A DNA stretch of 64,000 nt, from assembly GCA_022496185.1 (NCBI GenBank), contig WTXG01000075.1, forward strand, positions 94,718-158,717. Direction: 5' to 3'. Positions 6,954 through 56,461 of the stretch are shown piece by piece (position 1 is the stretch's first letter; each line of letters starts with the position of its first letter). Source of the DNA: Multifurca ochricompacta (Eukaryota > Basidiomycota > Agaricomycetes > Russulales > Russulaceae). Below the pieces are notes generated by a model. The model was not told the DNA's origin. It searched no databases and worked only from the letters and a program-made list of their open reading frames with translations. The translations under genes were made by a program, and so were the position numbers.

Positions 6954-7542
6954 TGTTACGACCCCTGCCTAGCAACCCGATTTTCTTCACTCTCCCCAAT
7001 GATGACCCTGCCCTTCCCCCTACGCTACACTTCTTGATTACGTCTCCTTCCTGGGACCCATCACGTGCCTTGCTCCCTTCCCCGTGATCGACTTTGTCTC
7101 TGTTTGCCTCGCTTTGTCTATGGTTGACTCCGTTTCTCTTATCTCTTATCCCTTATCGTACGACCGGACACTTACTTAGTTCCCTATCAGAAGCTAGGCT
7201 TTACGCCCTTCGCTTTCGTATATTTGGGCCCACATGACTCTGTTCTCTTATCTCGTAGACGCCCATTCGATTATGTATATAAGTCCGCTGTAACTACAAT
7301 GTAGACCTCAGACTCGACTTATTGAATACATCGGTGTTTGTCTTCTGGACTTCCCCTTGAAACCTCTGACTCAATCGTCTCAGTGCTTTTGGCACTTTCC
7401 GCTCACCATTGTCACTCGGGAACAGCCCCGTTGACTTTGACTCATCCATTCACACTCCAAGAGGTCTTGTTGATCTCTTATCTGAACACACGTACTAAGC
7501 TGTCACACAAGTCGTGCGGAACGTCTCACACTGGACGTAACA
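6954..7542 (+). repeat. gypsy A 5' LTR
   Basis: Begins TGTTACGACCCC and ends GGACGTAACA. It contains TATATAAG at 7276-7283 and the predicted transcript start AGACTCGACTT at 7310-7320. It is paired with 14323-14911. Confidence 0.92.
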
Positions 7543-34139: not shown

Positions 34140-35371
34140 ATGACTGATGATCTTAAACTCAATGTTATCAAGTTAGCAGCAGATGGATCCAACTGGATCA
34201 CATACCGAGATCGCATGAAGTGGATCATGGATATGAGGGGCTTATCAGAACTCCTCACGAACAACACTGTCACACAAAAATACATTGATGCTGGAACAGT
34301 AGGAGGGATAACTCCTGCACAACAATGGACAGCGGATGGAGCTATAGTGAATGTCACAGTTAGGTGCGGAACTGTGTCGGGGATCATGTGGGAGCTAGCC
34401 TCCCAAGTCACGTCAAGATAAGTCAAGGCTCTAGGTCACAGCAAAGTCAAGTTCTGGGTGTGCCCACAATGAAGTCGAGGGTGCGCGCGTGAATTGAAGT
34501 CGACGGCAGAGACACTCAGTCCTGCAGCAAGTTCACTAGGGTCGAAGGCTCTCCAAGTCACATCTTGGAGAGTTCAAGTGGGGTTCTAACTGAGGAGTTC
34601 AGATGAAGTCGAAGCACCTTGGATTGAACACAAGGAGAACAGACTTAGTCTGTCTCTCTACTCTAGTAGGTCTTTAAATACATGTAGAACTAGCTATGTC
34701 ATAGTAAATAGAAGGTTCTAGGACTATGACATAGTATCTAAATAGTTGTGCAGTAGAATGAGCTAGAACTAAGGAGAATTAGGAGGGGTTAGGCCCTCAG
34801 TAAGCCAAAACACTGGTGAAACACAATGTCAAGTCATTAGTAACGTCGCAGGGAGAATTCTGTCACAGTGAAACAGCTCATTGCCATGTCCATACCTGAT
34901 ACAGTCTTTAATCGAATTAAGACTGCAACGCATGCGAAGGCAGTATGGGACATCTTGACAACTCTTTTTGAGGGATGATTGAGTAGTTTGATGGTGGATC
35001 TTGGAAGGAAGTTCCAAAACATGAAATGTGGTGAAGACAACAATGTACGTGCTCACCTTGATAGGCTGGATGAGATGTGAGAGAAGCTCGCATCTATTGG
35101 CAGAGTTGTTGACAACCTCAAGTATGTCGCCATCATCTCAGGTTCATTACCACCATCCTATGACGGTCCCGTCAAATCTCTTATGACATCATATGATGCC
35201 AGTAATCAAGTTGTGACCCCTGTCACTATAAAGCAAGTTGCCATCAATGTATATGAACGTCAACTCCTCTGAAAAGCGCCTCAGGATGAGGCATTTGTAG
35301 CAAGTACCCAGCAGAAGAAGAAAAAGCATGACATTGAGTGTTTCAATTGCCACAAGAAGGGGCATATCAAA
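34140..35371 (+). pseudogene. gag: copia B' gag, split by a solo LTR
   Basis: ATG at 34140: MTDDLKLNVIKLAADGSNWI then TYRDRMKWIMDMRGLSELL, typical copia gag. The solo LTR 34351-34867 interrupts it. It resumes with VKQLIAMSIPDTVFNRIKT, AKAVWDILTTLFEG, stops at 34976, 35080 and 35269 (all TGA at Arg), and the CCHC knuckle CFNCHKKGHIKVDC around 35340. Would form the particle shell. Confidence 0.82.
34351..34867 (-). repeat. solo LTR of family S in copia B' gag
   Basis: 517 bp in reverse orientation (plus TGTCACAGTTAGGTGC ... GAATTCTGTCACA) with perfect 5-bp duplication gtgaa at 34346-34350 and 34868-34872. Closely similar to the reverse complement of 8121-8601. Confidence 0.88.
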
Positions 35372-38300
35372 GTGGACTGTTGGGCAAAGGGAGGAGGAAA
35401 AGAAGGCCAAGGGCCAAAGAGAACCAAGAGTGACAAAGACAATGTTGCTGTTGCAGCAGAAAAGACAGACAAGTCCACAGATATTGAGTCTTGGGTCATC
35501 GAAGTTACAAGTTATCAAGAGCAAGAGTCAAGTACTTTGTCAGTAGAAGAGACGGCAAGTGCAGCAAACACATGTGAAGCCAAGCTTTACGATTCTGGTG
35601 CCTCACGGCACATATCCCCTTTTCGTCACCAATTTCTCTCCTATCAGTCTATTCCCCCTCGACCTATTAGTGCTGCCGACAAATGCCTGTTCTATGCAAT
35701 TGGCACTGGTGACCTTCAAATTGAAGTGCCCAATGGCGTATCAACCACTCCAATAATCTTGTGAGATATACTGCACACGCCTGACATTCCACTCACTGTT
35801 GTATCAATAGGGCACATTGCAGGTGCAGGTTATGCCGTATCTTTTGAAGGCAATTATTGCAAGATCAAAAATCAAACAGGACACCAGATAGGCAGTATAG
35901 CGGCAAATTCAAATGGATTATACAAAGTCGAGCACACAGATCAGGTAGCAATAGCGATAACGGAAGAAGTTGATCTTCCCACGCTCCATAAACAACTTGG
36001 CCACATCTCTGTCGATGCCATTTGTACGTTGATTCGCAGTCATGCAGTCACCGGACTGTGTTTAATAGACGACCATTCACCATTCTTTTGCAAATCGTGC
36101 GAATATGCCAAGTTAACATGCAAGACAATCAAAAAGGAGCGTACAGTGCCGCCTGCAAAAGCTTTTGGAGAAGAAATCCACACTGATTTATGGGGACTGT
36201 CCCCAACTTCTACTATTGGAGGATGAAAATACTATGTGACATTCACTGACGATTATTTGAGATTTACAAAGATAGAGCTCTTGAGAAGTAAAGACGAGGC
36301 ACTAAAAGCTTACAAGAGCTTTGCAGCTTGGGCCTTAACACAGCATGGTGTTCGCATTTGACAATTGCGATCAGACCGTGGAGGTGAATTCACAAGTAAT
36401 GAATTCATGAAATTTTTGCAAGAACAAGGTACCAAACGATGTCTTACGACCCACGATACTCCACAACATAATGGTGTGGCGGAATCATTGAACCGTCGTC
36501 TTTCGGAGTGTGTGCGCGCCATCCTTCACCATGCGCAACTGCCCAAAAACTTATGGGGGGAGGCTATTCATTTCACTGTATGGTTAAAGAACCGTACTTC
36601 TACAAAAGTGCTCGGTAATGTAACACCTTTCGAGCGTCTTTACCAAGAAAAACCTAACCTGGAGAGAGTACCTGAGTGGGGACAGCACATCTGGGTTCAC
36701 AATCACACAGGCTCAAAACTGGATGTGCGAGGCCTAGAAGCACGATGGGTAGGTTACAATCAAGACAGTACACACGCTTCCTGCATGTATTGGACAGAGA
36801 AACGAACTGTTTCTGTAGAACGAAACTTCAAGTTCATGCCTCCAACTGTCTCTCTTTATTCACCACCTCCCAGTTATGCCACTGCGACTTCGCAACCTCA
36901 AGTTGCAACACAAGTTCCACCAGCCACCACTCTCCCAATGCCTCCTGTTTCAACCATCCAACCAACAATTTCCGCACTGCAAACACCATCAGTTGCGACG
37001 CAATCATCAATTGTAACACCTCAGACACCACTATCTACAGTCAGCGTGCCGATATTATCGCCCGTCGCTACTGATAGCAGTGAAGAAGAAATGGAAGATG
37101 AAGAAGTCGAAGAAGAACTTACTGAGCCAGTTGCGTCAACCTCAAAAGGAAAAGGTAGAGCAACTATGCAACCACCAGCCACGCCAAAGAAAAGATTCGA
37201 ATTCACTCAATCAATGCGAAAATCAGAACGCATTGCAAGACTTTTAGAGAGGCACAAAAGCGAAGGCTCGGACAGCCAACCATCTCGCAAGAGCACTCCC
37301 ACATCTTCGACAATATCTTCCAGGCTTAAATATCACCATCCAGATACACAAGAAGGCAGTTCGGCATCTATTGCTGATTTAGATATAGATTACGCGTACC
37401 ACACCGAATACAACGACGTCATCACAGCAGCAATTCAAGATGCCGAAGGCGATCCGAGAACATTAGCTGAAGCACAGATGCGTGCGGACTGGCCCCTTTG
37501 GAAAGAGGCCATGGACTGCGAAATCAAAACATTGGAAAAAGCTGGAACGTGGATCACGGTGTCATGTCCTCAAAATAAGAATATTGTAGGTTCAAAATGG
37601 GTTTTTTGTATCAAACAAAAAGCGGACGGTATGATAGACAAGTACAAGGCAAGACTTGTCGCATGAGGCTTCACTCAAGTTTATGGTGTCGATTATTTTG
37701 ACACTTTCTCTCCTGTTGCTAAACTCAGCAGTTTTTGCACCATCCTGGCTCTGGCAGCATGATTCAATTGGGATATCGAATCTTTCAATTTTAATGGTGC
37801 TTATCTAAATGGAGAACTAGATAACAATGAAGAAATTTATATGCAAGCGCCGCCTGCATATGAAAACAAAAATGGTAACACAGTTATGCGACTACGCAAG
37901 TCGCTTTATGGATTAAAACAAGCTGGAAGAAAATGGTATGACACACTCTCGCATGCCTTAGCTGACCTGGGTTTCTGCGTAAGCTATGCAGATCCAGGAG
38001 TTTTTTATACTTGCATGGAAGGGCATTTATTAGTCCTTGCCATTCACGTCGATGACTGTGCCTTTACAGGCAGTTCGAGCAAACTGATCGCACAATATAA
38101 AGTGAAACTTAATGACCGATATTCTATCACTGATCTAGGACCAATTCATTGGCTCCTAGGTATCAAAATCACGTGTGATAGATCAGCACAAACAATTTCA
38201 CTATCGCAAACATCATATATTACTTCAATTCTTGCGTGATTCAGATTTAGCGACGTGAAACCCAACAACACTTCCATGGCACCCGGAGTTGAGTATTCTA

Positions 38301-40564: not shown

Positions 40565-40620
40565 ACAGGTATGGGTATGGGTACAGGTATGGGTATGGGT
40601 ACCAATGAGGATACCCCAGG
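40565..40620. repeat. H1 fragment, left of gypsy E
   Basis: GGGTATGGGTACAGG-like repeats followed by accaatgaggataccccagg match the right end of H1 (compare 1445-1490). It continues at 56437-56461 (ccagggttacccctgccaat, then cacta), showing that gypsy E landed in an H1 copy. Confidence 0.8.
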
Positions 40621-41523
40621 TGTCACGGCTCTACCTTATTTTTTCCTTTCTCCCTTGAAGATCACATGACTGTGGGAAGATTACCCAGCAGTCTCAACAC
40701 GTGATCATGGGAATGTAGTCGTGACATGGATCATGTGACCGAGTCACATGTAATAGTCACATGCTGCTTAGTCAGCACAAGAGCCACTCAACAATAACAA
40801 GTCGATTCTCTATTGTGTGTACCACAATAGGCAAGGCCCCACAGTCTAGACGGTTCTAGACCAAGTGGAGCTGTTATCAAGATAAGAGGAGTCCAGCCTA
40901 GAAGGTTCTAGGTAAGTGGAGCTCTAGATAAGGGCCCAGGTTGGGCCATGGCCAATTTTAGCACAGAATCACATGTATCAGTAGATAGACATGTTCCAGA
41001 CCTAAGGGCTAGACTACATATCAGTTATCTACTCCACAGTGACGTCATTATGACATCACACTGTGGAGCATGATCAGTCAGCAGAGTAAAGCAGCTTACG
41101 AATCACAAAGATAAGGCTCAGTCAGCAATACAGCTGACTGATACTTGCTGATTCTTGCTTACACTCATCGCTTACCTCGTTACACTGAGAAATGTATATA
41201 AGACCCTCTGTAACAGCCTGTAGCCCCCATCTTGTCCTCTTGGGGCTGCAGGTGAGTAACTGTCTACACGAGTTCGATACATAGTGCTAATGGCATCCTG
41301 CCTCCCTGTGTGACTCGATCCTTTGGATCTTGTCCTCTTGGAGCTGCAGTTTCTTCCAGTTTCAGAACGCTGTCATCATGGTTGTATAAACCACAGTGGG
41401 TGACACAGTTCCTGGTCATTACTTAACGCGTGACGTTTGCCTCCGCGGTACGCCCAACGACTTAGGTCACCACACCTTTGCCCTTCTTGATTACTAATTG
41501 TACACGGAGCTTCACCCGTTACA
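40621..41523 (+). repeat. gypsy E 5' LTR
   Basis: 903 bp, TGTCACGGCTCTACC to CACCCGTTACA. TATATAAG at 41195-41202. ATCTTGTCCTCTTGGGGCTG occurs at 41229 and again, with one change, near 41327. Confidence 0.92.
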
Positions 41524-41535
41524 TTAGGACAAGAT
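41195..41535 (+). promoter_or_regulatory. gypsy E promoter, transcript start and self-primer site
   Basis: TATATAAG (41195-41202), then 26 nt, then ATCTTGTCCT (41229-41238). Its reverse complement AGGACAAGAT lies at 41526-41535, 2 nt after the LTR. The spacings (26 nt and 2 nt) equal those of gypsy-1, though the paired sequence is unrelated. This is covariation between families and supports Tf1-like self-priming. Confidence 0.75.
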
Positions 41536-42096: not shown

Positions 42097-44292
42097 CATC
42101 GAAACACACCAAAACTACGAAGCTTCTGGTCCAGCGGACCAGCTTCCATACCCTTTTCCACAACGCCGCGTATTCCGTGGGTTGACCGTATCATCCGGCG
42201 CGCTCGAGAGCGTGTCCAACAACTTCGAAGGAGAGGAAGACACATTTTAACGCCGCCGCTTCCTATTCAGGAGCAGCCGCATCAGGAAGACGTGACTGCG
42301 GAGAACATTCTTCCGCAACACCCCGACTTCCCTTTCACTTTCAACAACCTTCCCTCGACAGTCTCCTTCGATCTCGCATATCACTACCGTTGGGATAACA
42401 CCCAAGAAGAACATTTTGCCACACCTGCCTCTTCTACTATAGAAGGATCAGAAGGCGCTCTCTCCACTTCCCCTACTCTCCGCAAAGCCAACAACATCAT
42501 TGAAGAAAGCTTCGAGGACGAACGGGACATTTATATTTACCGCGACAGACTAGTGCGCAACTGGTTAAACGAAATAACTGAACGTTTACACCACCACCTG
42601 TCTGCCGAGGCCGAACTACGAGAGCTTTTTGGCAACTGGTATCTCCCCGGTACAGAAGTAACGGTCACCGACCTTGTCGCACGCGCCGCTGAGTGGGAAG
42701 AAGAAGAAGAAGAAGAAGAATTTGGGTCAGAATTAGAATATCTGACCGACTGAACGGTGGCTTCTAGAAGTTCTAGAACACCTAACCCTCCATACTCCCG
42801 CTCCACTAGGCCCTCTCGATTACCTAGCCGAGCACCGTCGCCTATAGAAAATTTAATCTCCCCTGCAATCGAAGCAGAACTAGAAGAACAACAGTTTATC
42901 AGGAATTTAGCTTCCCAGTTATCCGACGAATTACTCCGTCAAGCTGGTGTACCTGATATTACTTCTTCTAATTCCACTCCTTCCGATTCCAGCACTCCTA
43001 CTCGTCACGACACTCCTCCAGCCAGACAGAATAGTCCTACTAGTCCTATGGCTAGCACCGCTCCCACAACCGGGCCCAGTGGACCCAGTACCAATCCCCC
43101 GCCGCCAGCGCAGACCCCGCTTACAATGACACCGGCAGAGCTTCGTAATATGATGGGCGCCATGATGGCTGCCATCACACAGCTCTCCGCGGACGTCCAA
43201 ATAGTGGTCCAGCAGCTTGGACAGCCAACCCCTCCCCAGACAGTCGGCTCTGGAAAAGACTCTTCCGTTGCTCGACCTGCTTCCTGGGATGGAAAGGGAA
43301 ATTCAGCTGACGCCAGGCACTTCCTGGCTGCATTCCATAACTGGGGATGGAACCAAAAGCGGAACTTGAATGACTATGACCCCACGACAACCAGCTGGTC
43401 CAAGAGGGATGCAGATTGGATCTTGGCGGTCTTGAACTTAATGACTGGAGACGCACGAACGTGGGCTCTGCCGCATTTGGAGCAATTAAAAAACGGAGTT
43501 ATTCCCTTTTCAGCGAATTGGGGTAACTTCGAACAGGCATTTACTTCGCGGTTTATACCGCACGACATTGGAGAAGCAGCGCGATCAGCGCTGAAGAAAA
43601 TCCAACAAGGACGCCACAGCGTGGCAGAATACAAAGCTCGCTTCGACGAGCATTCACCTCAAACCGGATGGTCGGACCGAGACCTTTTCGATCGGTTCTA
43701 CGATGGCCTTTCCGGCAAAATCAAGGACACCTTGGCCATTATGCCAGTCCAACCCACAGATATGCAGACACTCTTCACGTCTGCTCAGCTAATCGACCAA
43801 AGATTACGCTGAAGAGAAGCAGAGAAGAAGGGAGAAGTTCTCCCTGAACCAACCCAGCACCGAAAAGACCCCAATGCTATGGAGATCGATGCCTCCAAAC
43901 AGCAACAAACAGGGTCTGGAAAGAAAAGCTTTTTCGATTACAAAGCTGCCTTTAAAGGAAAGTGCACGGGATGTGGAAGCAGTGCCCATACTTGGGCGAA
44001 CGGCAACCACAAAGAGCAAATCTGCAATCACTGTGGAAGAAAAGGGCATATTACTACAGGATGTTACCACAAATGGGCTGGAAAGCCCAAAGCAGCAAAA
44101 GTCGCTGGCTCTGACAGCCAGGCACCTGCAGCTCCTCAAGCTGCCGCAGCAAGCACCCAGCCTACCCAGGCTGCTAATGCTAGCTCGACCTCCAAAAAGG
44201 GTAACGCGCCCGCCAATAGCGACAACTCAGAGCTCCTAAAACAGGTGGCCGACCTTAAGGCCCAAATCGAAGCTCTGAAGGCAAGTTTTTAG
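42097..44292 (+). pseudogene. gag: gypsy E gag with N-terminal extension
   Basis: One reading frame from 42097 to the TAG at 44290, interrupted only by TGA at 42751 and 43810; the second replaces CGA (Arg). N-terminal extension: basic segment, then an acidic Glu run (about 42697-42720). Main gag: SR/P/T-rich start, RPASWDGKGNSADARHFLAA, GDARTWALPHLEQLKNGVIP, LFDRFYDGLSGKIKDTLAIM, then knuckle CNHCGRKGHITTGC near 44020. No ATG exists in this frame before about 43048, so initiation is unclear. The first clear homology to Ty3 gags starts near 43270. Confidence 0.75.
44283..44292 (+). promoter_or_regulatory. gypsy E gag/pol -1 frameshift site
   Basis: Gag ends AGT-TTT-TAG; pol is read AAG-TTT-TTA-GTG, one base back. 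Same T-TTT-T-purine arrangement as gypsy-1, in an unrelated context. Confidence 0.5.
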
Positions 44293-47200
44293 TGGCTTCT
44301 TCGGATGTAGCCGCAACCGAAGAAGCGGATATATGTGCTGTTTCTGAGACTGACTCGGATGACTCAATCATATTTACATCTGCTTGTGAGATGAACAATA
44401 GTATTAGTGCTTCCTCTCATGTTCGTAGTAGGGTTCGTTTCTTGCTTGATAAAATTGAAAAAGAAGAAAAAATCGATTCCTGCACGTTACCAGTAATAAA
44501 TAAATACGATCAGCATTTCCATATTTACGTCACTCTCGAAGGACGAAACAAAAGCACCACTGTAGTGGCTATGATAGATTCAGGAGCAACAGCCATGTTC
44601 CTGGACTATAAGTTCGCCACCCAAAAGAAGATGCTTCTAGAACCATTGGAAAACTCGATTCGAGTACATAACATCGACGGCAGTCATAATATAGCCGGAG
44701 ATATTACCCACACGGTCACCCTTTTAGTCACTATAGGGTCAAGGGTAGAAAAACACCGATTCCTGGTCACAAGTCTAGGACCGGAAAAGGTCATACTCGG
44801 ACTTCCATGGTTAAAATACAGCAACCCTTCTATTAATTGGGAAAGGGGCGAAGTCACCCTGCAAGACTCCATTGAGAAAGACATCCTCATGGAGGACGAA
44901 AGCGACTGGTTTGCAGGAGTAGAGCAAATATCGGCAAATAGATTAGAATGCCGACAATTTGTAAAAGATGGAGTCTTGGACTGTACCACCGACGAATTAT
45001 GGTGTTGTGCAGGCTTCACTTATTCACAAGAAGCCTACGCAAAAGATTACCTAACTCGTACGGAAGGAAAATCTTTTGAAGATTTGGTACCTCCACCATA
45101 TAGAGACTTCGCACGGGTCTTCTCAGAAGAAGAATCCCAGAGACTCCCTCAGCACCAACCATGGGACCATACCATAGACATTGTGCCTGGGTCGAAGACC
45201 CAATGGAAAGCCAAAGTCTATCCCATGTCACCAAATGAGCAAGTAGAACTGGACAAATTTCTGGAAGAGCATCTCCAGAAAGGGTATATCGTACCATCTA
45301 AATCTCCGATGGCGGTACCTGTATTCTTCATAAAGAAAAAGGATGGGAAAATCCGTCTCATCCAAGACTACAGACCTTTGAACGATATTACTGTCAAAAA
45401 CAAATACCCACTTCCACTTGCAGTCAACATCATCAATCGACTTAAGGGTGCAAAGATCTTTACCAAAATGGATGTGTGATGGGGATATCATAACATCCGG
45501 ATAAAGGAAGGAGACGAATACAAGGCGGCGTTTTCCACCAACTGTGGTCTCTTCGAGCCACGTGTAATGTATTTTGGATTAACAAATAGCCCCGCCACCT
45601 TCCAGGGATTTATGAATTCCATCTTCTCTGACATGATCGCAAAAGGGGAAGTCGCTGTATACATGGACGACATCTTAGTCTTCTCACCAAATATAGAAAA
45701 ACATAGAAAAGATGTCAGAGAAGTCCTAAAGCGACTAGAGGAATACGACCTCTACTTGAAACCCCAGAAATGCGACTTTGATAAAGATAACATGGAGTAC
45801 CTTGGACTTATCATATCTGAGGGACAAGTCAGGATGGACCCTGGGAAGGTCCAGGTGGTCAAAGACTGGCAAACACCGAAAACCCTGAAAGAAGTCCGCG
45901 CCTTTATTGGCTTTGCCAATTTCTATAGACGCTTTATACAGGGATTCTCAATTATTGCCAGACCACTTCACGACCTGACAAAGAAAAATCAACCCTGGCA
46001 GTGGGAAAGACCACAACAAGAGGCTTTCGACGCCTTAAAAAGGAGATTCATTCAAATGCCTATCTTGGCAATCTATGATCCTGATCTCCCAACTCGGGTC
46101 GAAACAGATGCCTCGGGATTTGCCACTGGAGGCATATTATCCCAAAAACACACCGATGGCCTTTGGCACCCTATCGCCTTCTGATCGCAGTCAATGTCGG
46201 AAGCAGAAAGAAATTATGAAATATACGATAGGGAAATGCTCGGCATAATCCGCGCCCTAGAAGACTGGCACCACTTCTTAGAAGGGCTTCTCCAGTTCGA
46301 AATAGTAACGGATCACAAGAATATTGAATGGTGGAGATCCATGCGAGACCTCACCAGACGTCAGGCACGATGGGCTCTCTACCTGAGCAGATTCAATTTC
46401 ACGATCCAATACAAAAAGGGGCACCTTATGCAAGCAGACGCCTTAAGCCGATTTTCGGCAGACCAGGTGTTAGACAATGAGGACAACAAACAAGTCCAGG
46501 TCCTCAAGCCGGAACACTTTCTTAGTGCGGCACGGGCACATTATCGCCCACATAGTTCTCCCCTTACGGAACGTATCAAAAAGGCAGGAAGCAGGGAAGC
46601 AGAAGTCATAGAAGGATTAAAAACCCTTACCAAGACTGCTCCCAGCGCCTTGAGAGATGGTGTCAACCTTTGGGAAGAAGAAGATGGCCTAGTTTACTAC
46701 AAAGGGAAACTTTATGTACCCAACGTACCGGATCTCCGAAAAGACATTATTCGGGATTGTCACGATTCGGTTACAGCCGGTCACCCTGGTAAAAACGGGA
46801 CCATCGAGTTGGTATCACGCTATTATTGGTGGCCCAGAATGGCACAATATATTACGCGCTATGTCGAAGGATGCGACCGATGTCAGCGATATCGGATGGA
46901 TAAGCACCCAGTCGCCCCTCTGCAACCACTGGAAGTTCCAGAAGGACCCTGGCAAACGATCGGAGTAGATCTGATCACAGGGCTACCTTCCTCTTCCGGG
47001 AAAGATGCGATCCTAACAATAGTGGATCATTATACGAAGCAAGTGCATCTATTCCCAGTTACAAGTGGTATTACAGCAGATGGCGTGGGAAAAATATACT
47101 TCGACCATGTATTCCCTCTGCATGGGATCCCCAAAAGTATTGTCAGTGACAGGGGTCCCCAGTTTGCAGCAAGGACCATGCGCACCACCTTGAAGCGGTT

Positions 47201-47377
47201 AGGGGTGAACAGTAGTCTCACCACAGCCTATCATCCACAAGCCAATGGTATGACAGAGCGTAAAAATCAAGAAATAGAACAATATTTACGACTCTTCATT
47301 GGCAAGAGACAGGATGACTGGATCGAGCTACTCCCCACAGCGGAGTTCGTATTAAACACGAGGAAGTCCTCAGCAAC
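44292..47377 (+). pseudogene. pol: gypsy E pol, N-terminal part
   Basis: Protease VAMIDSGATAMFLDYKFA at about 44567; RT with [33 protein letters not shown] and YMDD at 45660-45671; RNase H VETDASGFATGGIL and SEAERNYEIYDREMLGIIRA; integrase zinc arm HDSVTAGHPGKNGTIELVSR, CDRCQRYR, core GVDLITGLPSSSGKDAILTI, SDRGPQFAARTMR and TAYHPQANGMTERKNQEIEQ. In-frame TGAs at 45477 (KMDV-R-WGY) and 46182 replace Arg. Cut at 47378 by gypsy D and resumed at 54819. Confidence 0.88.
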
Positions 47378-47954
47378 TGTTACGTCCGGTGTGAGACGTT
47401 CCGCACGACTTGTGCGACAGCTTCGTTCGGGTATTCGGATAAGAGACCAATAGGGCCTCTTGGAATATAAATGAATGAGTCAAAGTCAACGGGGCTGTTC
47501 CCGAGTGACAATGTTAAGCGGAAAGTGCCCAAAGCACTGAGACGATCGAGTCAGAGGGTTCAAGGGGAAGTCCGGAAGACAAACACCGATGTATTCAATA
47601 AGTCGAGTCTAAGGTCTACTGGGTAGCTATAGCGGACTTATATACGTAAGGCAGTGGGCGTCTACGAGATAAGGGTGTGGAGTCAAGTGGGCCCAAATAT
47701 CTGAAAGCGGAGGGCGTAAAGCCTGGCTTCTACTGATAGGGAATTAAGTAAGTGTCCGGTCGTATGATAAGGAGATAAGAGATAAGCGATAAACGTGTAG
47801 GTAAATATGTACAAGCAAACGAGTCACGAGGATGGATGAAGGGCATGTGACGGGTCCCACGATGGAGACGTAATCTGGTAGTGAAGCGTAGGTGGAAGGG
47901 AGGGGTTATCGTTGGGCAAGAAAAAGAATGTGGGTAGCGATGGGGTTCGTAACA
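47378..47954 (-). repeat. gypsy D 3' LTR
   Basis: 577 bp; on the minus strand TGTTACGAACCCC to GGACGTAACA, preceded by a GAAGAGGGGGTGA purine tract (plus 47955-47967). Confidence 0.92.
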
Positions 47955-47985
47955 TCACCCCCTCTTCTGGTTCTAGCAGTCCCGG

Positions 47986-49218
47986 CTAGAAACGACTCGT
48001 ACCGTCATCATCCTGAACCAGCTCCAAGTAGTCGTCAGCTACATTACGGTCATCCATGCGGTACGACTCCAACTCCTGCGGGCATGCGTGGGTACGAAGG
48101 AATCCATATGGGCCGCGCTGACCACATGCGCGGCACAAGTCGTAGACAGGGCAGTCGATCTCTTTATGCCCAGCGTTATGACGAAGACACTTGCCGCACC
48201 ATCCCGATGGGTTAGTAACCGTCGGGGCCACCCCTACTCGTCGAAATATGCAGTGTCGACTCCAGTGGAGATTGCTACGGCAGTGGCGACACCATTTGCA
48301 ATTGAGCGGGCAATTCCAACTGATGTGGTATCTGCTGTCACAACGCCAGCAGGTCTCTCCGCGGGGGTTTTCATGTAGACGTGGCATCTCGAGTCGATTC
48401 GGCAGCAGCGTCGGGGCCGCGCCTAAGGTTCGAGGGGGGAGGGGTCGCGCATAAGTGTCGGCGTACCTTTCAGCGATCGTTTGATATGCATCCCCTCGTT
48501 CTAGCCTCTTTCTGATCTCGACAATCTCCTGTTCCAACTGGAACATTCCGTTCGTAAGTCTGGCCATCATCTTCGCATGTTCTTTGTATTGCTGGTTCAA
48601 CGTCCTTCGCAGCGTGATGCTCTTCCTCAATCTCATGACTTCTGCCTTCAAGCGCGGGAGCCTCATGTCATTCATTACTTCGTCGATCGCGAAGGCGCGG
48701 CAGTCCTCCGCAGCAAGGTGACCCAACTGTTCATCGGTCAGCGTATGATGAAGCCGACCTGTGTACCTTTCATCCAAATATACGGGTGCCCCATAGACCG
48801 GCCCATCCTTTTTCATGCATCCTGCCACATCCATTCCTCCATTGGTGTAGTAAATGTACTTGGCGATGGCTGTGGTTCCGTCGGCCATGGTGATTTCTAG
48901 GGGGAAGTACATGGAGGAGTTGGGGTTGTTGGGAATAAAGGGAAATTCGGGGGCCTCATCGTCAATCTCTCCGTTGAGTAGGTCGTTGGGATGGGGTTCT
49001 TCACTGTGAGTGAAATCGTCGTTTGGGTTTGGGGATTGGTTCTTGATGCGGGCCTCCGCAGCGTCATAGTCGATGGGGGACGAGGGACGAGTGGATGGGT
49101 GAGCGGACGGGAAGTTTTCGGCAATGGTCATGGGGGAAGTAAAGGCGTCGATGGCAGCAGAGGCGGCGATGAAAGACATGATAGACTGTTCTGTGGTAGT
49201 AATTCGCTGGGGGAGCAT
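47986..49218 (-). CDS. gypsy D ORF3: intact coiled-coil, four-zinc-motif protein of unknown function
   Basis: 410 codons from ATG 49218; the start conserved in A and B is the Met at 49179 (MSFIAASAAIDAF). Residues 1-95 are low-complexity and acidic. 96-165 is a conserved block (MYFPLEITMADGTTAIAKYI, YTNGGMDVAGCM, GPVYGAPVYLDERYTGRLHH). About 188-245 is heptad-like helix. 290-303 and 310-323 are CX2CX4HX4C knuckles; 341-356 is CX2CX6HX4C; 362-379 is CX2CX11HXC; the tail is acidic. It begins 36 bp after pol on the same strand, probably on the genomic transcript. CCHC knuckles bind RNA or ssDNA in known families, so a nucleic-acid role is likely (inference). No membrane segment. Three copies in the window show it is a fixed part of the family. 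Confidence 0.88.
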   Translation of the reverse strand: MLPQRITTTEQSIMSFIAASAAIDAFTSPMTIAENFPSAHPSTRPSSPIDYDAAEARIKNQSPNPNDDFTHSEEPHPNDLLNGEIDDEAPEFPFIPNNPNSSMYFPLEITMADGTTAIAKYIYYTNGGMDVAGCMKKDGPVYGAPVYLDERYTGRLHHTLTDEQLGHLAAEDCRAFAIDEVMNDMRLPRLKAEVMRLRKSITLRRTLNQQYKEHAKMMARLTNGMFQLEQEIVEIRKRLERGDAYQTIAERYADTYARPLPPRTLGAAPTLLPNRLEMPRLHENPRGETCWRCDSRYHISWNCPLNCKWCRHCRSNLHWSRHCIFRRVGVAPTVTNPSGWCGKCLRHNAGHKEIDCPVYDLCRACGQRGPYGFLRTHACPQELESYRMDDRNVADDYLELVQDDDGTSRF

Positions 49219-49254
49219 ATACTGGGGAATTCAAGAGGTTCTGGGGCTGTTCTT

Positions 49255-52200
49255 TTAACTGTTTTTGGGCGCTTCTGGATGTCGGGTATGGAACTCCGTG
49301 ATAAGGGCCAGGGCAAAGATATCTCCGGCTGGTTCCCATGAGTTGTCAGAGGCTGGGAATCCCTTCCACTTAATCAGGTAATACAGTCTGCGCCCTCGGC
49401 CTTGTCGCTTCGAGTCTAGAATGCGTTCTACTTCCCACTCTTCTTCCCCGTCGATAAGGTCAGGAGGGGGTCTCGAGAAGTTTTCTCCATGTAGAGGTGT
49501 CTCTTTGTAGGGCGTAAGCAGTTTGGCATGGAAGACTGGGTGAATGCGCCATGTGGGGGGGAGCTCGAGTTGGTATGACACATCTGACAGCTTCCTTGTT
49601 ATCTTAAAAGGTCCGTGACGTCGGGGCGCTAACTTGGCGGTCGGATGTGACGTGTGGATGTTCTTCCCTTCCAACCAGACCAGATCATTGGTCCGATAAG
49701 GTGTGAACCTTGTGGACCTCTCAGCCAGGGTCTTTTGCGCCTTCAACAGGTTTTCATTGGCCGATTTCCTAATCTCCTCCCATTGGTCGATACGTTGTGT
49801 GGCTGAAGGGACATTCGTTGGCCTTCCTGTCCATGTGGCTCGGGGTGTCCATCCCATGATAAGCGAAAATGGGGAGTGTTTCGTGGTGCCATTGGGCCAA
49901 GAATTGTGGGCAAACTCTGCTGTCGCGAGCCAGTCAGCCCAATCATCCTGTCGTCCGTTGCACCAGAACCGAAGTACTGTTCGAGCCACTGGTTTGTTCT
50001 TTCCGACTGTCCGTCTGTCTGTGGGTGATATGCCGTGGAGATGTTCTGGGCGATATTCAGCGTTTTACAGAGCGCTCTAGCAAACGCAGACGTGAAGCGT
50101 GGGTCGCGGTCTGAAATGATCTTTTCAGGGAGGCCATAGTGTCTGTAGACGTGATCCAGATAGAGTTTGGCCACTCCTTCTGCTGTGATAGATTCGTTGC
50201 AGGGTATGAACAATGCCGCTTTCGAACAGTCGTGATCAGTGATGGTCAGGACTGAGTCGAAACCTCTGGAAGTGGGGAGTTTGACGATGAAATCCATGGC
50301 AATAGTCTGGAATGGTTGTGAGGTCGTCGGCGTAATCGGGAATGGTGCCGGTGGTTGCGGGTGCGTATTCACTTTGTTAGCCTGGCAGTCTGCACATCCC
50401 TTCACATATTCCTCCACATCCTTTTTCATATTTGGCCACCAGTAATCGCGTTTGGCAAGGCGTAAGTGTTGGCGATGCCAGGATGTCCTGCAGAGGGGAG
50501 GTCATGGTGAAAATGGATCACCCCCCTCTTAATGTTGTCGCCACCGGTGACAACGAGACGATCCCCGTCTTTCCACCACAAGCCGTCGACTTGTTTCAGG
50601 TTATGGGCCTCTACCCAGGATTGGCATAACTGCTGATTCATATTTTGCGACACTTGTGCCCATAGGTCCATGTCATGGAGGCTTACAACCGCTTGCTTTG
50701 CGAAAACCTCTTCTGGGAGCACAGTGATATCGCTATTGTCCTCTTTCCCATTACTAAAATCGGGTCGTCTTGACAGAGCATCTGCGCGTGCATTGCGACT
50801 TCCTGCAATATGTTTCAACACGAAGTTGTATTCTTCCAGCTCTAGGACTTCGCGCGCAACCCTTCGGCTATTTTGTGGGGTTCCTTCCAATAGAGTAGGT
50901 TGGAGTGGTCGGTATGAATGGTGGTCTTATGAGGTGTCCCCGCTAGGTATGGTCGCCAATGTCGTAGCGCTTTCACAATAGCAAGCAGTTCCCTGTCCCA
51001 GATATCATAGTTTCGTTCCGCGGGTGAGAATGTTTCCGAGTAGAAGGCAACTGGGTGAAGTAGCCCTCTTCATCCCTTTGATTCAGTACAGCTCCATTAG
51101 CAAAGTGGGACGCATCGACTTCGAGTTCAAAGGGCTTCTTCAGATCCGGCTGTAAGAGGACTGGTTCTGAGCCAACAATATCTCGGATCTGTTCGAAGGC
51201 CTGTTGTTGTTCTTCTGTCCAATGCCAAGGTACATCCTTCTTTAACAATCCATTTAGCGGTTGGGCGATCCCTGAAAATCCCCTGACAAATCGTCGATAG
51301 AAATTGCAAAACCCATGAAGGACCGCACGTCCTTGACACACGTAGGTGTGGGCCATTCTCGGATTCCTTGTACTTTTATGGATCCATCCGTACGTGTCCT
51401 CCTTCTAGGATAACTCCCAGATATCAACGCTTCGTTGTTCGAACGAGCATTTGGCCGGTTTAAGGTACAGATCGTGTTCATGTAGGATGTCTAGCACCTG
51501 GTGTACTCGCTTTCGATGATGGGTCAGGTCGTCTGTAGTGGCCACTAGTATGTCTCCATGTATACTACTACTTCGCCAGTAAGAATGAGGTCACGGAATA
51601 TGTGATTCATCATAGACTGGAAGGTGGCAGGCGAGTTGGTAAGGCCGAAGAACATGACGTTCGGCTCAAAGAGCCCTTGGTTGGTTTTGAACGCGGCTTT
51701 GCACTGGTCTCCCTCTTTGATCCGAATGTTATTGTAACCCCAACGGACGTCCATTTTGGAGAATAAGGACTTGTCTCGCATGTATCGATGAGCTCTGATA
51801 TGAGTGGCAGTGGATAGGTATTCTTTACAGTATGGGCATTTATCCGTCGGTAGTCTTGTACGGGTCGGAGTTTGCCATCTTTCTTCTTGATGAAGAAGAA
51901 TGGCGATGCATATGGTGACTTTGACGGCGGATATATCCCTTGGCAAGGTGTTCTTCGAGGAAGGTTGTGAGTGCGGTTGTTCTGCTGGGACAGTGGATAG
52001 ATTTTGCAGTCAATTGCTGCTGGGGTATCGGGCATGAAATCGATGGCGTGGTCCCATGGTCTCACAGGGGGAAAACGTTGCGATTCCTCCTCTGAGAACA
52101 CCTTCCAGTGCCGGTGGTACTCTCTGGGCACTACCTCTTCAAAGGTCCTTTCTGTATGCCCTTCCACTGCTTTCTGCGCAAGCTCTGATGCTTTGGTAGC

Positions 52201-52740
52201 GAAGCAGCAGCCTGGATCTTCCTTTCTTCTTCTATCCTTCGCACTGCCGAGTGTCGAGCCGCATAGTCGTACCCATTGACGTGATAAGACAGGGTAGGAA
52301 TCTTTATCCATGGTGGCATCGTCCAGTTGATCTTGGGCTCGAATGCAGCGAGCCAGGGGTATCCTAGACTAAATCTTCTCCACCTAGATTGGTGATTAGG
52401 AAGCGTAGACTTTCGTCTTTTCCCCTACTTGGACACTAAGGTCCGTGTAATGTGTGATTTTTCCTGCTTGATTGGCCGTTCCATCAATATTCCAGATATT
52501 CTTTTCCTGAGGGAGTGCCAGCATCCCTAACCCATGGTCTCGTCATCCGTAGGCTAATAAAATTGTCGGTGGCTCCTGAGTCGATCAGGATGTCACGATC
52601 GGCCGTCCTCTGTGTAGTTTCGAAATGCACTGGTATTTTCAAAGATTTGAAGCGACTAGTATACACAGAGGTTACATGTAGTGCTCGCGCCCAGGCCGAT
52701 GGGTCAGAGCCAGTTAAAAATCCTTTTTCGCGAACGCCTT
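49255..52740 (-). pseudogene. pol: gypsy D pol with chromodomain, frameshifted
   Basis: Minus-strand pieces: protease DILIDSGATDNF (52666-52484), LGYPWLAAFEPK region, RT from 52311 with [20 protein letters not shown] and LFSKMDVRWGYNN, catalytic site reading VVVYMETY because one base of GACGAC is lost (near 51560), RT connection and RNase H 51356-50973, integrase 50890-49743 (HHDLPSAGHPG, CADCQANK, DRDPRFTSAFAR, TAYHPQTDGQSERTNQW), and chromodomain WEVERILDSKRQGRGRRLYY then LIKWKGFPASDNSWEP, ending at 49255. At least six single-base frameshifts. Stops of the CGA-to-TGA type are rare, in contrast with gypsy B. Confidence 0.85.
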
Positions 52741-52745
52741 TTCCA

Positions 52746-54218
52746 CTAGGATGGCTCGCACTTCTTCACTTCCTTCATCATGTTGGCCCATATTTCCTGT
52801 GCCTTTTCCTCCTTTGTCGACGTCTTTTTGTCGACAGTTGGTGGGTTGTTGCGGACAGGTGTGACAGTTGCTTCTGCCGCGCGTACTCCCTTCTTGGGAC
52901 ATTCTTTTGACATATGCCCTTGTGCTTTGCAGCGAAAGCACCGTCCTTCCTTCATCAACGTCTGCCTCTCATCTTCTGTAAGGGCGACCCGTGCCCTGGT
53001 TCTGTCAGCAGAGGTATCCATTGCGTTCGGATCCCTCTGACCGGTGTGTGTGGGTTTAACTCCAAAGGCGGCCTTCCACTGGTCGCGGGTTTTTCCTTTC
53101 TTGGTGTCGACTCCGAAGCGGGTCTGGAAGTCGAGGTAATCCTGCTGCTGTCGTCGGGCAGCGTCGACCCACGTATCCCAGTCATTGGGATGGTGGAATT
53201 GGATAATGTTTTTCACCAGAGGGTTAGGCAGCCCTTGGGAGAAGAGGTCCAGCGTCGCCTCTTCGTCTGTGTCATAACCGGCCCTGTTGGCCAAACTCCT
53301 GAACTTTGCCACATAGGCGTCCAGTTCTCCTTTTTCCATTTTCAGGGCTTTCAATTCTCGGGCCGCCTTCTGCTTGGCCTGCCCATCCGTGTAGGCATCT
53401 TTGAACCGCTGGGCAATGGTTTCCCAAAGTCCCTCACTAGTGGTGCGACGCCCATTCTCAATTTGTTCGTTCAGCCACTCCAGCTGTTCCATGGTCCAAT
53501 CGTCTACGGCCTCCCCCTGTATCAGTGAGAGGAAGAGGTTGGCACGTTGGAAAGGATTAATAATTTGGGGAACGTCATGGTTGAAGTTTTTGAAAGTGGT
53601 AAACTCCAACATAAACTTTTTGCTCTGTGATCGATCCCCTGTAAATGTCTGTGGCAGTACACCTGACAAACGTCCTGATGGTGGGGGAATGTTTGGTGGT
53701 GCCGCTACTGGGGCTGGTGGGGCGGGGTCTGGAAGCTGGGCGGCAATGGTGGACATGTTCTGGTAAAACGGGGTGACGGTGTCGGTGGATTGTATAGAAA
53801 TCTGGGGAGTTGTCAAAGCAGGGGCTCTGGACGTGACAACTACGGGTGCAACTGGGGCTGTAGGCGACGCTAATACCAGTGCTTCTTCGCTATGTTCTTC
53901 TACGTACTCCTCTGGCTCGGAGTCCGTGACAATGGCCGGAGGATTTTCTCTCCACGGGCCTAGTCCGAATTCAGGTGGGGCAGGTCTGGTTGTAACCCAA
54001 GAGTGTCGACTGTCCGAGTATCGGATACAATACCAAACTCTTTTCTCTTCGTCGTATTCTACCGGTTGGTATCTTCCGTCGTGATAGACGTAGTATCCAA
54101 ACTCGGACTCAAAATCTTTCCAGGCGGCAGAGCCAAGTACTTGCTGTGAAAGATTATTCTCGTCTCTGCGTTCGATGAGTTCTTCCCTAAAGAGGGCCTG
54201 ACTGCGGCTGGAAGCCAC
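52746..54218 (-). CDS. gag: gypsy D gag
   Basis: 490 codons. Starts at GTG GCT TCC (54218); the first ATG in frame is about codon 146. N-terminal part conserved in the family (LIERRDENNLSQQVLGSAAW, RPAPPEFGLGPWRENPPAIV), Pro/Thr-rich linker, capsid domain (FTGDRSQSKKFMLEFTTFKN, LFSQGLPNPLVKNIIQFHHP), and knuckle CFRCKAQGHMSKEC. A frame change near 52765 replaces the last 15 or so residues (relatives end SEEVRAILVEKAFAKKDF, then stop). The GGATTTTTAA junction is at 52714-52723. Confidence 0.85.
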   Translation of the reverse strand: MASSRSQALFREELIERRDENNLSQQVLGSAAWKDFESEFGYYVYHDGRYQPVEYDEEKRVWYCIRYSDSRHSWVTTRPAPPEFGLGPWRENPPAIVTDSEPEEYVEEHSEEALVLASPTAPVAPVVVTSRAPALTTPQISIQSTDTVTPFYQNMSTIAAQLPDPAPPAPVAAPPNIPPPSGRLSGVLPQTFTGDRSQSKKFMLEFTTFKNFNHDVPQIINPFQRANLFLSLIQGEAVDDWTMEQLEWLNEQIENGRRTTSEGLWETIAQRFKDAYTDGQAKQKAARELKALKMEKGELDAYVAKFRSLANRAGYDTDEEATLDLFSQGLPNPLVKNIIQFHHPNDWDTWVDAARRQQQDYLDFQTRFGVDTKKGKTRDQWKAAFGVKPTHTGQRDPNAMDTSADRTRARVALTEDERQTLMKEGRCFRCKAQGHMSKECPKKGVRAAEATVTPVRNNPPTVDKKTSTKEEKAQEIWANMMKEVKKCEPS

Positions 54219-54224
54219 TGTGAG

Positions 54225-54501
54225 AGACTCGACTTGATGTTACGTCCGGTGTGAGACGTTCCGCACGACTTGTGCGACAGCTTCGTTCGGGTATTCGGAT
54301 AAGAGACCAATAGGGCCTCTTGGAATATAAATGAATGAGTCAAAGTCAACGGGGCTGTTCCCGAGTGACAATGTTAAGCGGAAAGTGCCCAAAGCACTGA
54401 GACGATCGAGTCAGAGGGTTCAAGGGGAAGTCCGGAAGACAAACACCGATGTATTCAATAAGTCGAGTCTAAGGTCTACTGGGTAGCTATAGCGGACTTA
54501 T
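54225..54501 (-). promoter_or_regulatory. gypsy D promoter, transcript start and self-primer site
   Basis: Minus strand: TATATAAG (near 54501-54494), AGACTCGACTT at 54470-54460, and AAGTCGAGTCT at 54235-54225, 2 nt after the LTR end. A perfect 11-nt complement in the youngest copy. Confidence 0.75.
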
Positions 54502-54813
54502 ATACGTAAGGCAGTGGGCGTCTACGAGATAAGGGTGTGGAGTCAAGTGGGCCCAAATATCTGAAAGCGGAGGGCGTAAAGCCTGGCTTCTACTGATAGG
54601 GAATTAAGTAAGTGTCCGGTCGTATGATAAGGAGATAAGAGATAAGCGATAAACGTGTAGGTAAATATGTACAAGCAAACGAGTCACGAGGATGGATGAA
54701 GGGCATGTGACGGGTCCCACGATGGAGACGTAATCTGGTAGTGAAGCGTAGGTGGAAGGGAGGGGTTATCGTTGGGCAAGAAAAGAATGTGGGTAGCGAT
54801 GGGGTTCGTAACA
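54238..54813 (-). repeat. gypsy D 5' LTR
   Basis: 576 bp, identical by eye to 47378-47954 except one A missing in the AAAAA run near its right end. Confidence 0.92.
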
Positions 54814-54818
54814 GCAAC

Positions 54819-55522
54819 GGATCATACCCCATTTGAATTACTCTACGGGTATACCCCGGACTTCACTATCCCCGTGGGACGTGCCACTGGCATCCCCAGT
54901 TTAGACCAACGCCTACAACAGTTACGTCTTGCCCGACGCGACGCAGAGGCAGCTATGAGGCTTAGCAAGACACGTATGACTCGTGATCTAGCTCAATCAG
55001 GGCACAATTTCCCAAACGAGGGAGATTACGTCTGGTTGCAGTCCAAAAACATTAAAATCCACCAACGGTCCCAGAAACTAGGTCCCAAACAGTTAGGACC
55101 ATTCAAAGTACTGAAGAAGCTTAGTGACCTGGATTACAAATTGGACTTGCCCCCTGCACTGAAAGTCCACAACATATTTCACGTGGACCGCCTCAGTCTA
55201 TACAAAGGCAACAACGTTAACGGGCTGATGCCCACACCACCAGACCCCATTACCATAGATGGTGAGGAAGAGTATGAAGTGGACCATATCAGAGACAGCA
55301 AAATGTTGGTCGCACACTCAAGTTCCTTATCCGATGGAAGGGTTACGGCGAAGGCGAAGATACGTGGGAACCGGAACGGAATCTAACCCATGCACAGGAC
55401 TCCATTCAGAAGTTCTACCACCAGAACCCAGGAGCTCCTAGGAAGATTGCCGCAATCCACTTCGCCACTGCCCCTTGGCAGCCCACACAACTCTATACGG
55501 CTTATGAGGACGTTACGCCCTA
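54819..55522 (+). pseudogene. pol: gypsy E pol, C-terminal part with chromodomain
   Basis: Resumes integrase with DHTPFELLYGYTPDFTIPVG, GPFKVLKKLSDLDYKLDLPP and VHNIFHVDRLSLYKGN. The chromodomain begins EEYEVDHIRDSK. A 1-nt frame change near 55305 is followed in the other frame by RTLKFLIRWKGYGEGEDTWE, then PERNLTHAQDSIQKFYHQN, ending at the TAG at 55520. Domain order and spacing are normal for a chromovirus. Confidence 0.85.
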
Positions 55523-55533
55523 GGAAGGGGTAA

Positions 55534-56436
55534 TGTCACGGCTCTACCTTATTTTTTCCTTTCTCCCTTGAAGATCACATGACTGTGGGAAGATTACCCA
55601 GCAGTCTCAACACGTGATCATGGGAATGTAGTCGTGACATGGATCATGTGACCGAGTCACATGTAATAGTCACATGCTGCTTAGTCAGCACAAGAGCCAC
55701 TCAACAATAACAAGTCGATTCTCTATTGTGTGTACCACAATAGGCAAGGCCCCACAGTCTAGACGGTTCTAGACCAAGTGGAGCTGTTATCAAGATAAGA
55801 GGAGTCCAGCCTAGAAGGTTCTAGGTAAGTGGAGCTCTAGATAAGGGCCCAGGTTGGGCCATGGCCAATTTTAGCACAGAATCACATGTATCAGTAGATA
55901 GACGTGTTCCAGACCTAAGGGCTAGACTACATATCAGTTATCTACTCCACAGTGACGTCATTATGACATCACACTGTGGAGCATGATCAGTCAGCAGAGT
56001 AAAGCAGCTTACAAATCACAAAGATAAGGCTCAGTCAGCAATACAGCTGACTGATACTTGCTGATTCTTGCTTACACTCATCGCTTACCTCGTTACACTG
56101 AGAAATGTATATAAGACCCTCTGTAACAGCCTGTAGCCCCCATCTTGTCCTCTTGGGGCTGCAGGTGAGTAACTGTCTACACGAGTTCGATACATAGTGC
56201 TAATGGCATCCTGCCTCCCTGTGTGACTCGATCCTTTGGATCTTGTCCTCTTGGGGCTGCAGTTTCTTCCAGTTTCAGAACGCCGTCATCGTGGTTGTAT
56301 AAACCACAGTGGGTGACACAGTTCCTGGTCATTACTTAACACGTGACGTTTGCCTCTGCGGTACGCCCAACGACTTAGGTCACCACACCTTTGCCCTTCT
56401 TGATTACTAATTGTACACGGAGCTTCACCCGTTACA
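55534..56436 (+). repeat. gypsy E 3' LTR
   Basis: 903 bp, TGTCACGG to CCGTTACA; seven differences from the 5' LTR by my reading, for example acatg/acgtg and ccgcgg/ctgcgg. Confidence 0.92.
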
Positions 56437-56461
56437 CCAGGGTTACCCCTGCCAATCACTA
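56437..56461. repeat. H1 right-end fragment after gypsy E
   Basis: ccagggttacccctgccaat, then cacta: the last 25 bp of H1, continuing from 40620 after removing gypsy E and one ccagg. The expected H1 target copy would be agtagaac (56462-56469); its left partner is lost. Confidence 0.78.

What the first reader, a model, noticed from the sequence alone, without database searches (positions are those of the whole stretch)
41195..41535. Independent family gypsy-2 keeps the self-priming geometry with a different sequence
In gypsy E the pair is ATCTTGTCCT (41229-41238) and AGGACAAGAT (41526-41535). The distances (26 nt from TATATAAG, 2 nt from the LTR end) are identical to gypsy-1, while the paired bases are unrelated. 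Conservation of pairing and spacing without sequence conservation is strong evidence for a mechanism rather than chance.
Basis: seen in the sequence. Interest (0 to 1): 0.82.

Follow-up and report, generated by a model that had tools for sequence, protein, structure and literature searches.

The report
Self-priming retrotransposon with duplicated first exon
A fungal jumping gene carries a sequence that should let the start of its own RNA prime copying into DNA (a known trick), and it also holds an exact second copy of that RNA start at the end of what looks like a tiny intron, which could let it splice its RNA and still rebuild the intron when it copies itself.

Summary
In element E, ATCTTGTCCT (41229-41238) starts 26 nt after TATATAAG and pairs with AGGACAAGAT (41526-41535), 2 nt after the LTR end. 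20 of 20 further copies fetched keep it. A related family (G) keeps the same pair; gypsy-1 and a third family (F) have unrelated pairs in the same layout. Self-priming of the Tf1/sushi type is the best reading, and that mechanism is known.

The primer starts a 23-nt segment (41229-41251) that ends at GTGAGT and recurs at 41327-41349, ending CTGCAG. In 40 of 42 distinct intron-bearing LTRs held, the two copies are identical. In family G the spacer is unrelated and shorter, yet both 23-mers are kept, and G's one change (C to T) is in both. GT...YAG ends mark spacer plus second copy as an intron of 58-99 nt; LTRs with the exact spliced junction exist (8 E-type, 52 G-type). Proposed: exon 1 is copied at the intron's 3' end, so first-strand DNA made on spliced RNA can anneal to the second copy in the unspliced 3' LTR and restore the intron. 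Splicing and restoration are inferred; no RNA data were available.

The parts
40621..41523 (+). 5' LTR of gypsy-2 element E (903 nt, TGTCA...TTACA)
   Evidence: self-comparison; 3' copy 55534-56436 differs at 7 of 903 sites
55534..56436 (+). 3' LTR of element E
40616..40620 (+). target-site duplication CCAGG (right copy 56437-56441)
41195..41202 (+). TATATAAG promoter box
   Evidence: 22 of 22 rows
41229..41238 (+). self-primer ATCTTGTCCT, predicted RNA 5' end
41229..41251 (+). copy 1 of the 23-nt segment = predicted exon 1 (+1 to 5' splice site)
41252..41257 (+). predicted 5' splice site GTGAGT
   Evidence: 22 of 22 E rows; follows copy 1 in 23 of 23 intron-bearing E LTRs
41252..41349 (+). 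predicted intron, 98 nt, whose last 23 nt repeat exon 1
41287..41291 (+). CTAAT, the only CTRAY (branch-point-like) motif in the predicted intron
41327..41349 (+). copy 2 of the 23-nt segment (one G to A at 41342 in this LTR)
41524..41525 (+). 2-nt gap TT between LTR end and PBS
41526..41535 (+). primer-binding site AGGACAAGAT
56142..56164 (+). copy 1 in the 3' LTR
56240..56262 (+). copy 2 in the 3' LTR, the proposed landing site of strong-stop DNA
42757..43812 (+). gag (Retrotrans_gag PF03732)
   Evidence: E 1.1e-13
44292..45479 (+). protease and start of RT
   Evidence: protease; RT position
45330..45815 (+). reverse transcriptase domain with one in-frame TGA
46194..47377 (+). RNase H and integrase, cut by the nested element
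47378..54813 (-). nested gypsy-1 element C inside E (flanked by GCAAC on both sides)
54745..55386 (+). open frame with the integrase C-terminal SH3_Tf2-1 domain
   Evidence: E 3.1e-19
55278..55523 (+). open frame with the chromodomain (PF00385)
   Evidence: E 6.2e-11
7310..7320 (+). gypsy-1 A self-primer AGACTCGACTT (PBS 7545-7555)
54460..54470 (-). gypsy-1 C self-primer (PBS 54225-54235)

Best explanation
E is a chromovirus that primes its own reverse transcription. RNA starts at A41229; its first 10 nt fold onto the PBS 2 nt after the LTR, are cut off by RNase H and act as primer, as in Tf1. In addition the RNA carries a short spliceosomal intron (41252-41349) wholly inside the LTR. Exon 1 is exactly the 23 nt from +1 to the 5' splice site, and the intron's last 23 nt are a copy of exon 1. 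When genomic RNA is spliced at its 5' end, minus-strand strong-stop DNA reads U5, exon 2 and exon 1. It then pairs without a break to copy 2 plus what follows in the unspliced 3' LTR, and extension copies the intron, copy 1 and U3. The intron is thus rebuilt in each cycle and copy 2 is rewritten from copy 1. Landing on copy 1 instead gives an intron-free LTR. Shown: the pairing geometry, the exact repeat, splice-like signals, intron-free LTRs. Inferred: the start site, priming, splicing, and the restoring transfer.
For: Priming: three unrelated primer/PBS pairs with the PBS 2 nt after the LTR and the primer 34-35 nt from the TATA start; PBS kept in 20 of 20 further E copies and 21 of 21 G copies; predicted pairing probability of primer to PBS 0.91-0.97 in the 7 sequences folded, copy 2 at most 0.013; chromodomain and SH3_Tf2-1. 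Intron: LTRs found by the U3 alone, with nothing asked of what follows, gave 44 distinct LTRs (one stray hit dropped). 42 have GT right after the 23-mer and a second copy ending YAG, and in 40 of these 42 the copies are identical; the other 2 are intron-free LTRs fetched on purpose. One CTRAY motif lies in the predicted intron in 37 of 38 LTRs. E and G spacers (75 and 36 nt) are no more alike than shuffles (162 of 200 score as well) while each 23-mer is 22 of 23 identical, and the one difference is in both copies. In the C359 element both LTRs lack the intron and the PBS is intact, most simply because an intron-free RNA was copied. L097 holds a third copy that starts exactly at +1 and runs straight into exon 2, joined to another U5. 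The E-type double-unit LTR expected from slippage on unspliced RNA was not found: 0.
Against: No RNA data. Recombination between two 23-nt direct repeats would give the same intron-free junction. BARE authors hold that spliced RNA must be kept out of replication (PMC3735527, passages read). Of the intron-free G-type LTRs 34 of 52 begin with ACAG, so that lineage seems to have spread without the intron; absence could also be the older state. The G donor (GTGCGC, GTGCGG and others) is weaker than E's. In E the CTAAT lies about 60 nt from the 3' splice site, and one CTRAY in such a length is expected by chance about 0.2-0.4 times (own arithmetic). The copies compared within E and within G were chosen by likeness to stretches that hold the repeat. 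All evidence is from one genome; scans of viral and prokaryote collections for relatives gave nothing.
Confidence: 0.58

Rival explanations
1. Plain Tf1-type self-priming on unspliced RNA. The 23-nt repeat is an old duplication whose two copies are held by selection or by template switching, and no splicing takes part in replication.
For: Self-priming alone explains primer, PBS and spacing. Unspliced E and G leaders fold with copy 1 on the PBS. Intron-free LTRs can arise by recombination between the repeats.
Against: Does not explain why the repeat starts at +1 and ends at GT in two families with unrelated spacers, nor the C to T change shared by both copies in G. Slippage on unspliced RNA should also give double units; 0 of the E type found. 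The third copy in L097 joins exon 2 directly.
Confidence: 0.25
2. The intron is spliced only in mRNA used for translation; genomic RNA stays unspliced, and copy 2 is kept for another reason, such as its pyrimidine-rich splice acceptor.
For: Splice-like signals; known use of separate RNA pools in BARE (PMC3735527, passages read).
Against: An acceptor does not need an exact 23-nt copy of exon 1 that tracks its changes; a full-length element with both LTRs intron-free suggests that intron-free RNA was copied.
Confidence: 0.13
3. tRNA priming; the self-match is coincidence.
For: F's PBS begins TGG, as tRNA-type sites do.
Against: Against 20 of the 62 tRNA matches, the best 3'-anchored match was 1 nt for E, G and gypsy-1 and 4 nt for F, and the best internal match 6-7 nt. 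The set is incomplete; no gene in the 30 tRNA loci fetched was read as tRNA-Met.
Confidence: 0.03
4. The 10-nt match is chance.
For: A match this long to the whole 903-nt LTR appears in 22 of 2000 shuffles.
Against: The position and the repetition in three unrelated pairs.
Confidence: 0.01

Closest known systems
Tf1 of Schizosaccharomyces pombe and the Tf1/sushi group of chromoviruses (Tf2, Tj1, Tosmo1-3, Tcn1)
   Same: PBS just after the 5' LTR complementary to the 5' end of the RNA; Tf1 primer of 11 nt; chromodomain (passages of PMC7175516, PMC10085805, PMC4600332)
   Different: E has a 2-nt gap before a 10-nt PBS, and a second exact copy of the RNA start inside an intron-like unit in the LTR; no mention of such a unit in the passages read
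Tcn1 clade of non-seed plants and fungi
   Same: Chromoviruses, most of the plant ones predicted to self-prime (PMC6317226, passages read)
   Different: No repeat of this kind mentioned in the passages read; no self-priming found for SM-Tcn1 (PMC2864245, passages read)
BARE1 of barley
   Same: An LTR retrotransposon with a short spliced intron (104 nt)
   Different: The BARE1 intron lies near the end of gag, serves translation, and its spliced RNA is held not to be copied (PMC3735527, passages read)
Retroviruses with a splice donor in R, such as foamy viruses (recalled, not read)
   Same: A 5' splice site close to the RNA start within the LTR
   Different: The acceptor lies far downstream and genomic RNA is unspliced; no exon-1 copy at the acceptor (recalled)

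Membership tests
Tf1/sushi self-priming chromoviruses | PBS next to the 5' LTR complementary to the start of the element's own RNA | tested here: met
   Pair and position confirmed; the RNA start itself is predicted from the TATA box
Tf1/sushi self-priming chromoviruses | Chromodomain at the integrase C-terminus | tested here: met
   PF00385 E 6.2e-11 at 55278-55523; SH3_Tf2-1 E 3.1e-19
Tf1/sushi self-priming chromoviruses | PBS not complementary to a tRNA 3' end | tested here: inconclusive
   No match of note against 20 of 62 tRNA matches
Tf1/sushi self-priming chromoviruses | Three-duplex 'pretzel' RNA fold | tested here: inconclusive
   Central primer:PBS duplex predicted at 0.91-0.97; the two flanking duplexes were not tested
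Tf1/sushi self-priming chromoviruses | Placement in the clade by RT/integrase phylogeny | not tested
   No tree built; the few hits that bear an organism name are from mushroom-forming fungi
Tf1/sushi self-priming chromoviruses | RNase H cut after the primer and priming by the RNA 5' end | not testable with these tools
   Needs RNA and cDNA from the fungus
Spliceosomal intron in the LTR | GT...AG ends with a branch-point motif | tested here: met
   GT and YAG in 42 of 42 intron-bearing LTRs found by U3 alone; one CTRAY in 37 of 38 (whose pattern itself required GT and a near-copy). CTRAY as fungal branch consensus is recalled
Spliceosomal intron in the LTR | Removed from RNA | not testable with these tools
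   Indirect only: LTRs with the exact spliced junction

The most novel reading that the evidence does not exclude
A retrotransposon replicates through spliced genomic RNA and regenerates its intron in every cycle, because the intron ends with an exact copy of exon 1 that captures the strong-stop DNA at the first strand transfer. This also keeps the two copies identical and lets the intron body evolve freely.
Probability: 0.45. Interest if true: 0.82.

Novelty: new variant of a known kind. Interest (0 to 1): 0.58.

Why it matters
Self-priming in another fungal genome adds members to a known group. The duplicated first exon would be new as far as my searches show: retroelements are expected to lose introns when spliced RNA is copied, and this layout would let an element keep one. 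It would be a route by which an intron persists in a reverse-transcribed genome and by which a repeat is kept identical through reverse transcription rather than selection. It gives sharp predictions that ordinary RNA-seq and cDNA sequencing can test.

Tried and rejected
Chance match: rejected by position and by repetition across families. tRNA primer: no support in the 20 of 62 tRNAs examined. Copy 2 as a second transcription start: rejected by inspection, no TATA-like box about 30 nt upstream. Copy 2 as the working primer: folding gives it 0.013 or less. E-type double-unit LTRs: 0; the G type was not searched. A variant 23-mer (ATCTTGTCTTCTTGGGGGTGTAG) was sought as a test of paired change; 5 sites were found, all followed by GCTC, but the pattern as I wrote it could not match a GTGCG donor, so this test is void. 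The counts came from a pattern that itself required GT and a near-copy; they were redone without that requirement. Relatives in other genomes: none in viral contigs or prokaryote genome contigs; the viral-contig scan with the integrase piece matched 2 stretches, neither encoding a relative. The insert in L097 is not random DNA: apart from its own site it matches at 85-94% in 16 further places (plus one 27-nt piece at 100% within one of them), 8 of which lie beside 23-mer sites among the 100 listed, so it is read as the U5 of a sister subfamily. L118 could not be folded because the script caught an earlier primer match.

Papers: ten searches of the open library listed no paper that I recognised as describing an intron wholly inside an LTR that is restored at strand transfer. 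The two hits were opened at their passages and concern a lentiviral vector leader and the bacterial ltrB gene. Only listings and the passages named here were read, and the library lacks most subscription papers. Three founding Tf1 papers were not held.

Full report
What was checked. The window lies in a 53.8-Mb, 605-contig genome. Few of the integrase relatives listed bear an organism name; those that do are from mushroom-forming fungi (Coprinellus, Rhodofomes, Moniliophthora), so the host is most likely a basidiomycete; this is inference. Element E is a Ty3/gypsy chromovirus with LTRs 40621-41523 and 55534-56436 (7 differences in 903), target duplication CCAGG, and a gypsy-1 element nested in its integrase. 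It carries gag, protease, RT, RNase H, integrase and a chromodomain, with in-frame stops, so this copy is broken.

The pair. All letters and coordinates of the finding are right. The same layout holds for gypsy-1 (AGACTCGACTT), for family F (AGACTGTCCA, loci L093 and L120), and for family G, which has E's primer but an RT 73% identical to E's at the DNA level. In each the PBS starts 2 nt after the LTR, and the primer starts 34 nt (E, gypsy-1) or 35 nt (G, F) from the first base of the TATA-like box. Two of the five gypsy elements examined in the window, gypsy-1 B and D, have a decayed PBS with one G.U pair. Shuffles reach the observed match in at most 22 of 2000 whole-LTR trials and at most 7 of 2000 trials of the +1 region. 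Folded from predicted +1 to just past the PBS, the primer:PBS helix forms with probability 0.91-0.97 in 7 of 7 sequences folded; with the PBS letters shuffled (8 times each) the mean is 0.04 or less, highest single value 0.274 in G. Together with the chromodomain and the Tf2-like SH3 domain this is self-priming as in the Tf1/sushi group. That is a known mechanism.

The second copy. The primer's 10-mer occurs twice in the E LTR, as part of a 23-nt segment, ATCTTGTCCTCTTGGGGCTGCAG, at 41229-41251 and, with one change, at 41327-41349. Copy 1 begins at the predicted RNA start and is followed at once by GTGAGT. Copy 2 ends in CTGCAG. Among 20 further E copies (20 of 23 non-window hits reaching the PBS) plus the 3' LTR, copy 1, GTGAGT, copy 2 and (where present) PBS do not vary, while U3 differs from the column majority in 2% of cells, the intron body in 3% and the region after copy 2 in 5% (one search counted copy 2 one base too far to the right, and its 7 differences fall on that extra base). 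The window's own 5' LTR has one change in copy 2 (41342).

Family G. In 21 G copies (L091 plus 20 of 22 further hits that run past the LTR into the PBS) copy 1 is ATCTTGTCCTCTTGGGGCTGTAG in 21 and copy 2 the same in 20, the other having lost one base. The spacer is 36 or 44 nt (35 in one copy) against mostly 75 in E and shows no likeness to E's beyond chance (162 of 200 shuffles score as well, one copy of each compared). The 40 nt before +1 (30 of 40) and the U5 (117 of 199) are recognisably related, 0 of 200 shuffles each, so E and G share descent; the distal U3 (24 of 200) and the leader past the PBS (56 of 200) are not clearly alike. The single difference between E and G in the 23-mer is present in both copies of G. 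So something keeps copy 2 equal to copy 1, with borders at +1 and at GT, while the spacer is free to change.

Intron reading. LTRs in the held loci were found by the U3 just before +1 alone, nothing being asked of what follows: 45 distinct hits, of which one is a stray and 44 are LTRs (25 E, 19 G). 42 have GT right after the 23-mer (23 of 23 GTGAGT in E, two of them shifted by an extra C in the U3; 19 of 19 GTG in G) and a second copy ending in YAG; in 40 of 42 the copies are identical, the exceptions being the window's 5' LTR and L112. The other 2 are the intron-free LTRs of C359, fetched on purpose. In 38 LTRs caught by a stricter pattern, exactly one CTRAY motif lies in the predicted intron in 37, as CTAAT or CTGAT, and predicted intron lengths are 58-67 nt (G) and 94-99 nt (E). 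Genome-wide, LTRs in which copy 1 runs directly into the sequence after copy 2 number 8 (E) and 52 (G) within 3 mismatches, with no hit for the reversed control pattern; intron-bearing counts by similar but not equal patterns are 176 and 179. One element (C359) lacks the unit in both LTRs and has its PBS. Of the 52 G-type cases 34 begin with ACAG, a subfamily that seems to have multiplied in this form. The same junction could come from recombination between the two repeats, so these LTRs agree with splicing but do not prove it.

A molecular fossil. Locus L097 (C191) has copy 1, intron and copy 2, then the U5 of a sister subfamily, then a third 23-mer that begins exactly at the predicted +1 and runs straight into E's exon 2. 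This is what strong-stop DNA made on a spliced RNA and ended at its 5' end would look like if it jumped to a wrong place. It is a single case, and about 16-23 nt at the joint are of unknown origin.

Proposed mechanism. Strong-stop DNA copied from spliced RNA ends with exon 1 joined to exon 2. In the 3' LTR this matches copy 2 plus the following sequence without a break, but copy 1 only over the exon itself. Annealing to copy 2 and extension restores intron, copy 1 and U3; annealing to copy 1 drops the intron. The model predicts identity of the two copies at birth, free spacer evolution, some intron-free LTRs and no double units; what was seen agrees, with double units searched for the E type only. 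It also needs the RNA to run past copy 2 in the 3' LTR unspliced, which was not tested. The start site, splicing and the transfer are inferred. An unspliced-RNA account cannot be excluded.

Known or new. Self-priming is known from Tf1 and relatives. Short introns in LTR elements are known, for example BARE1, whose authors hold that spliced RNA must be kept out of replication. Ten searches of the open library listed nothing that I recognised as an intron contained in an LTR and restored during reverse transcription (two listed papers opened are unrelated). I rate it a new variant of a known kind.

The GT and identity counts were redone without a built-in requirement, one void test was marked as such, and two papers were opened.

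Noticed in passing
41218-41251: The predicted RNA start of E lies in the loop of a 10-bp inverted repeat (CTGTAGCCCC ... GGGGCTGCAG, one G.U pair if RNA); G has a near-copy and F has TGGACAG ... CTGTCCA around its primer. The upstream arm is outside the predicted RNA. Unexplained.
   Followed up: partly
17864-18450 and 60518-61094: gypsy-1 copies B and D have a PBS with T for C at a CpG, leaving a G.U pair to the primer; fits decay after insertion.
   Followed up: no
L097 (C191:9100-9800): Chimeric LTR with three copies of the 23-mer and the U5 of a sister subfamily.
   Followed up: partly
L118 (C328:800-4200): An element with the gypsy-1 primer and PBS whose LTR gave only two short matches to gypsy-1 A in the R-U5 part.
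   Followed up: no
45477-45479 and 46182-46184: In-frame TGA stops in pol of E; whether they come from C to T decay (RIP or CpG) was not tested.
   Followed up: no
25383-28587 and 35006-38210: A 3.2-kb inverted repeat at 96% identity outside the gypsy elements.
   Followed up: no
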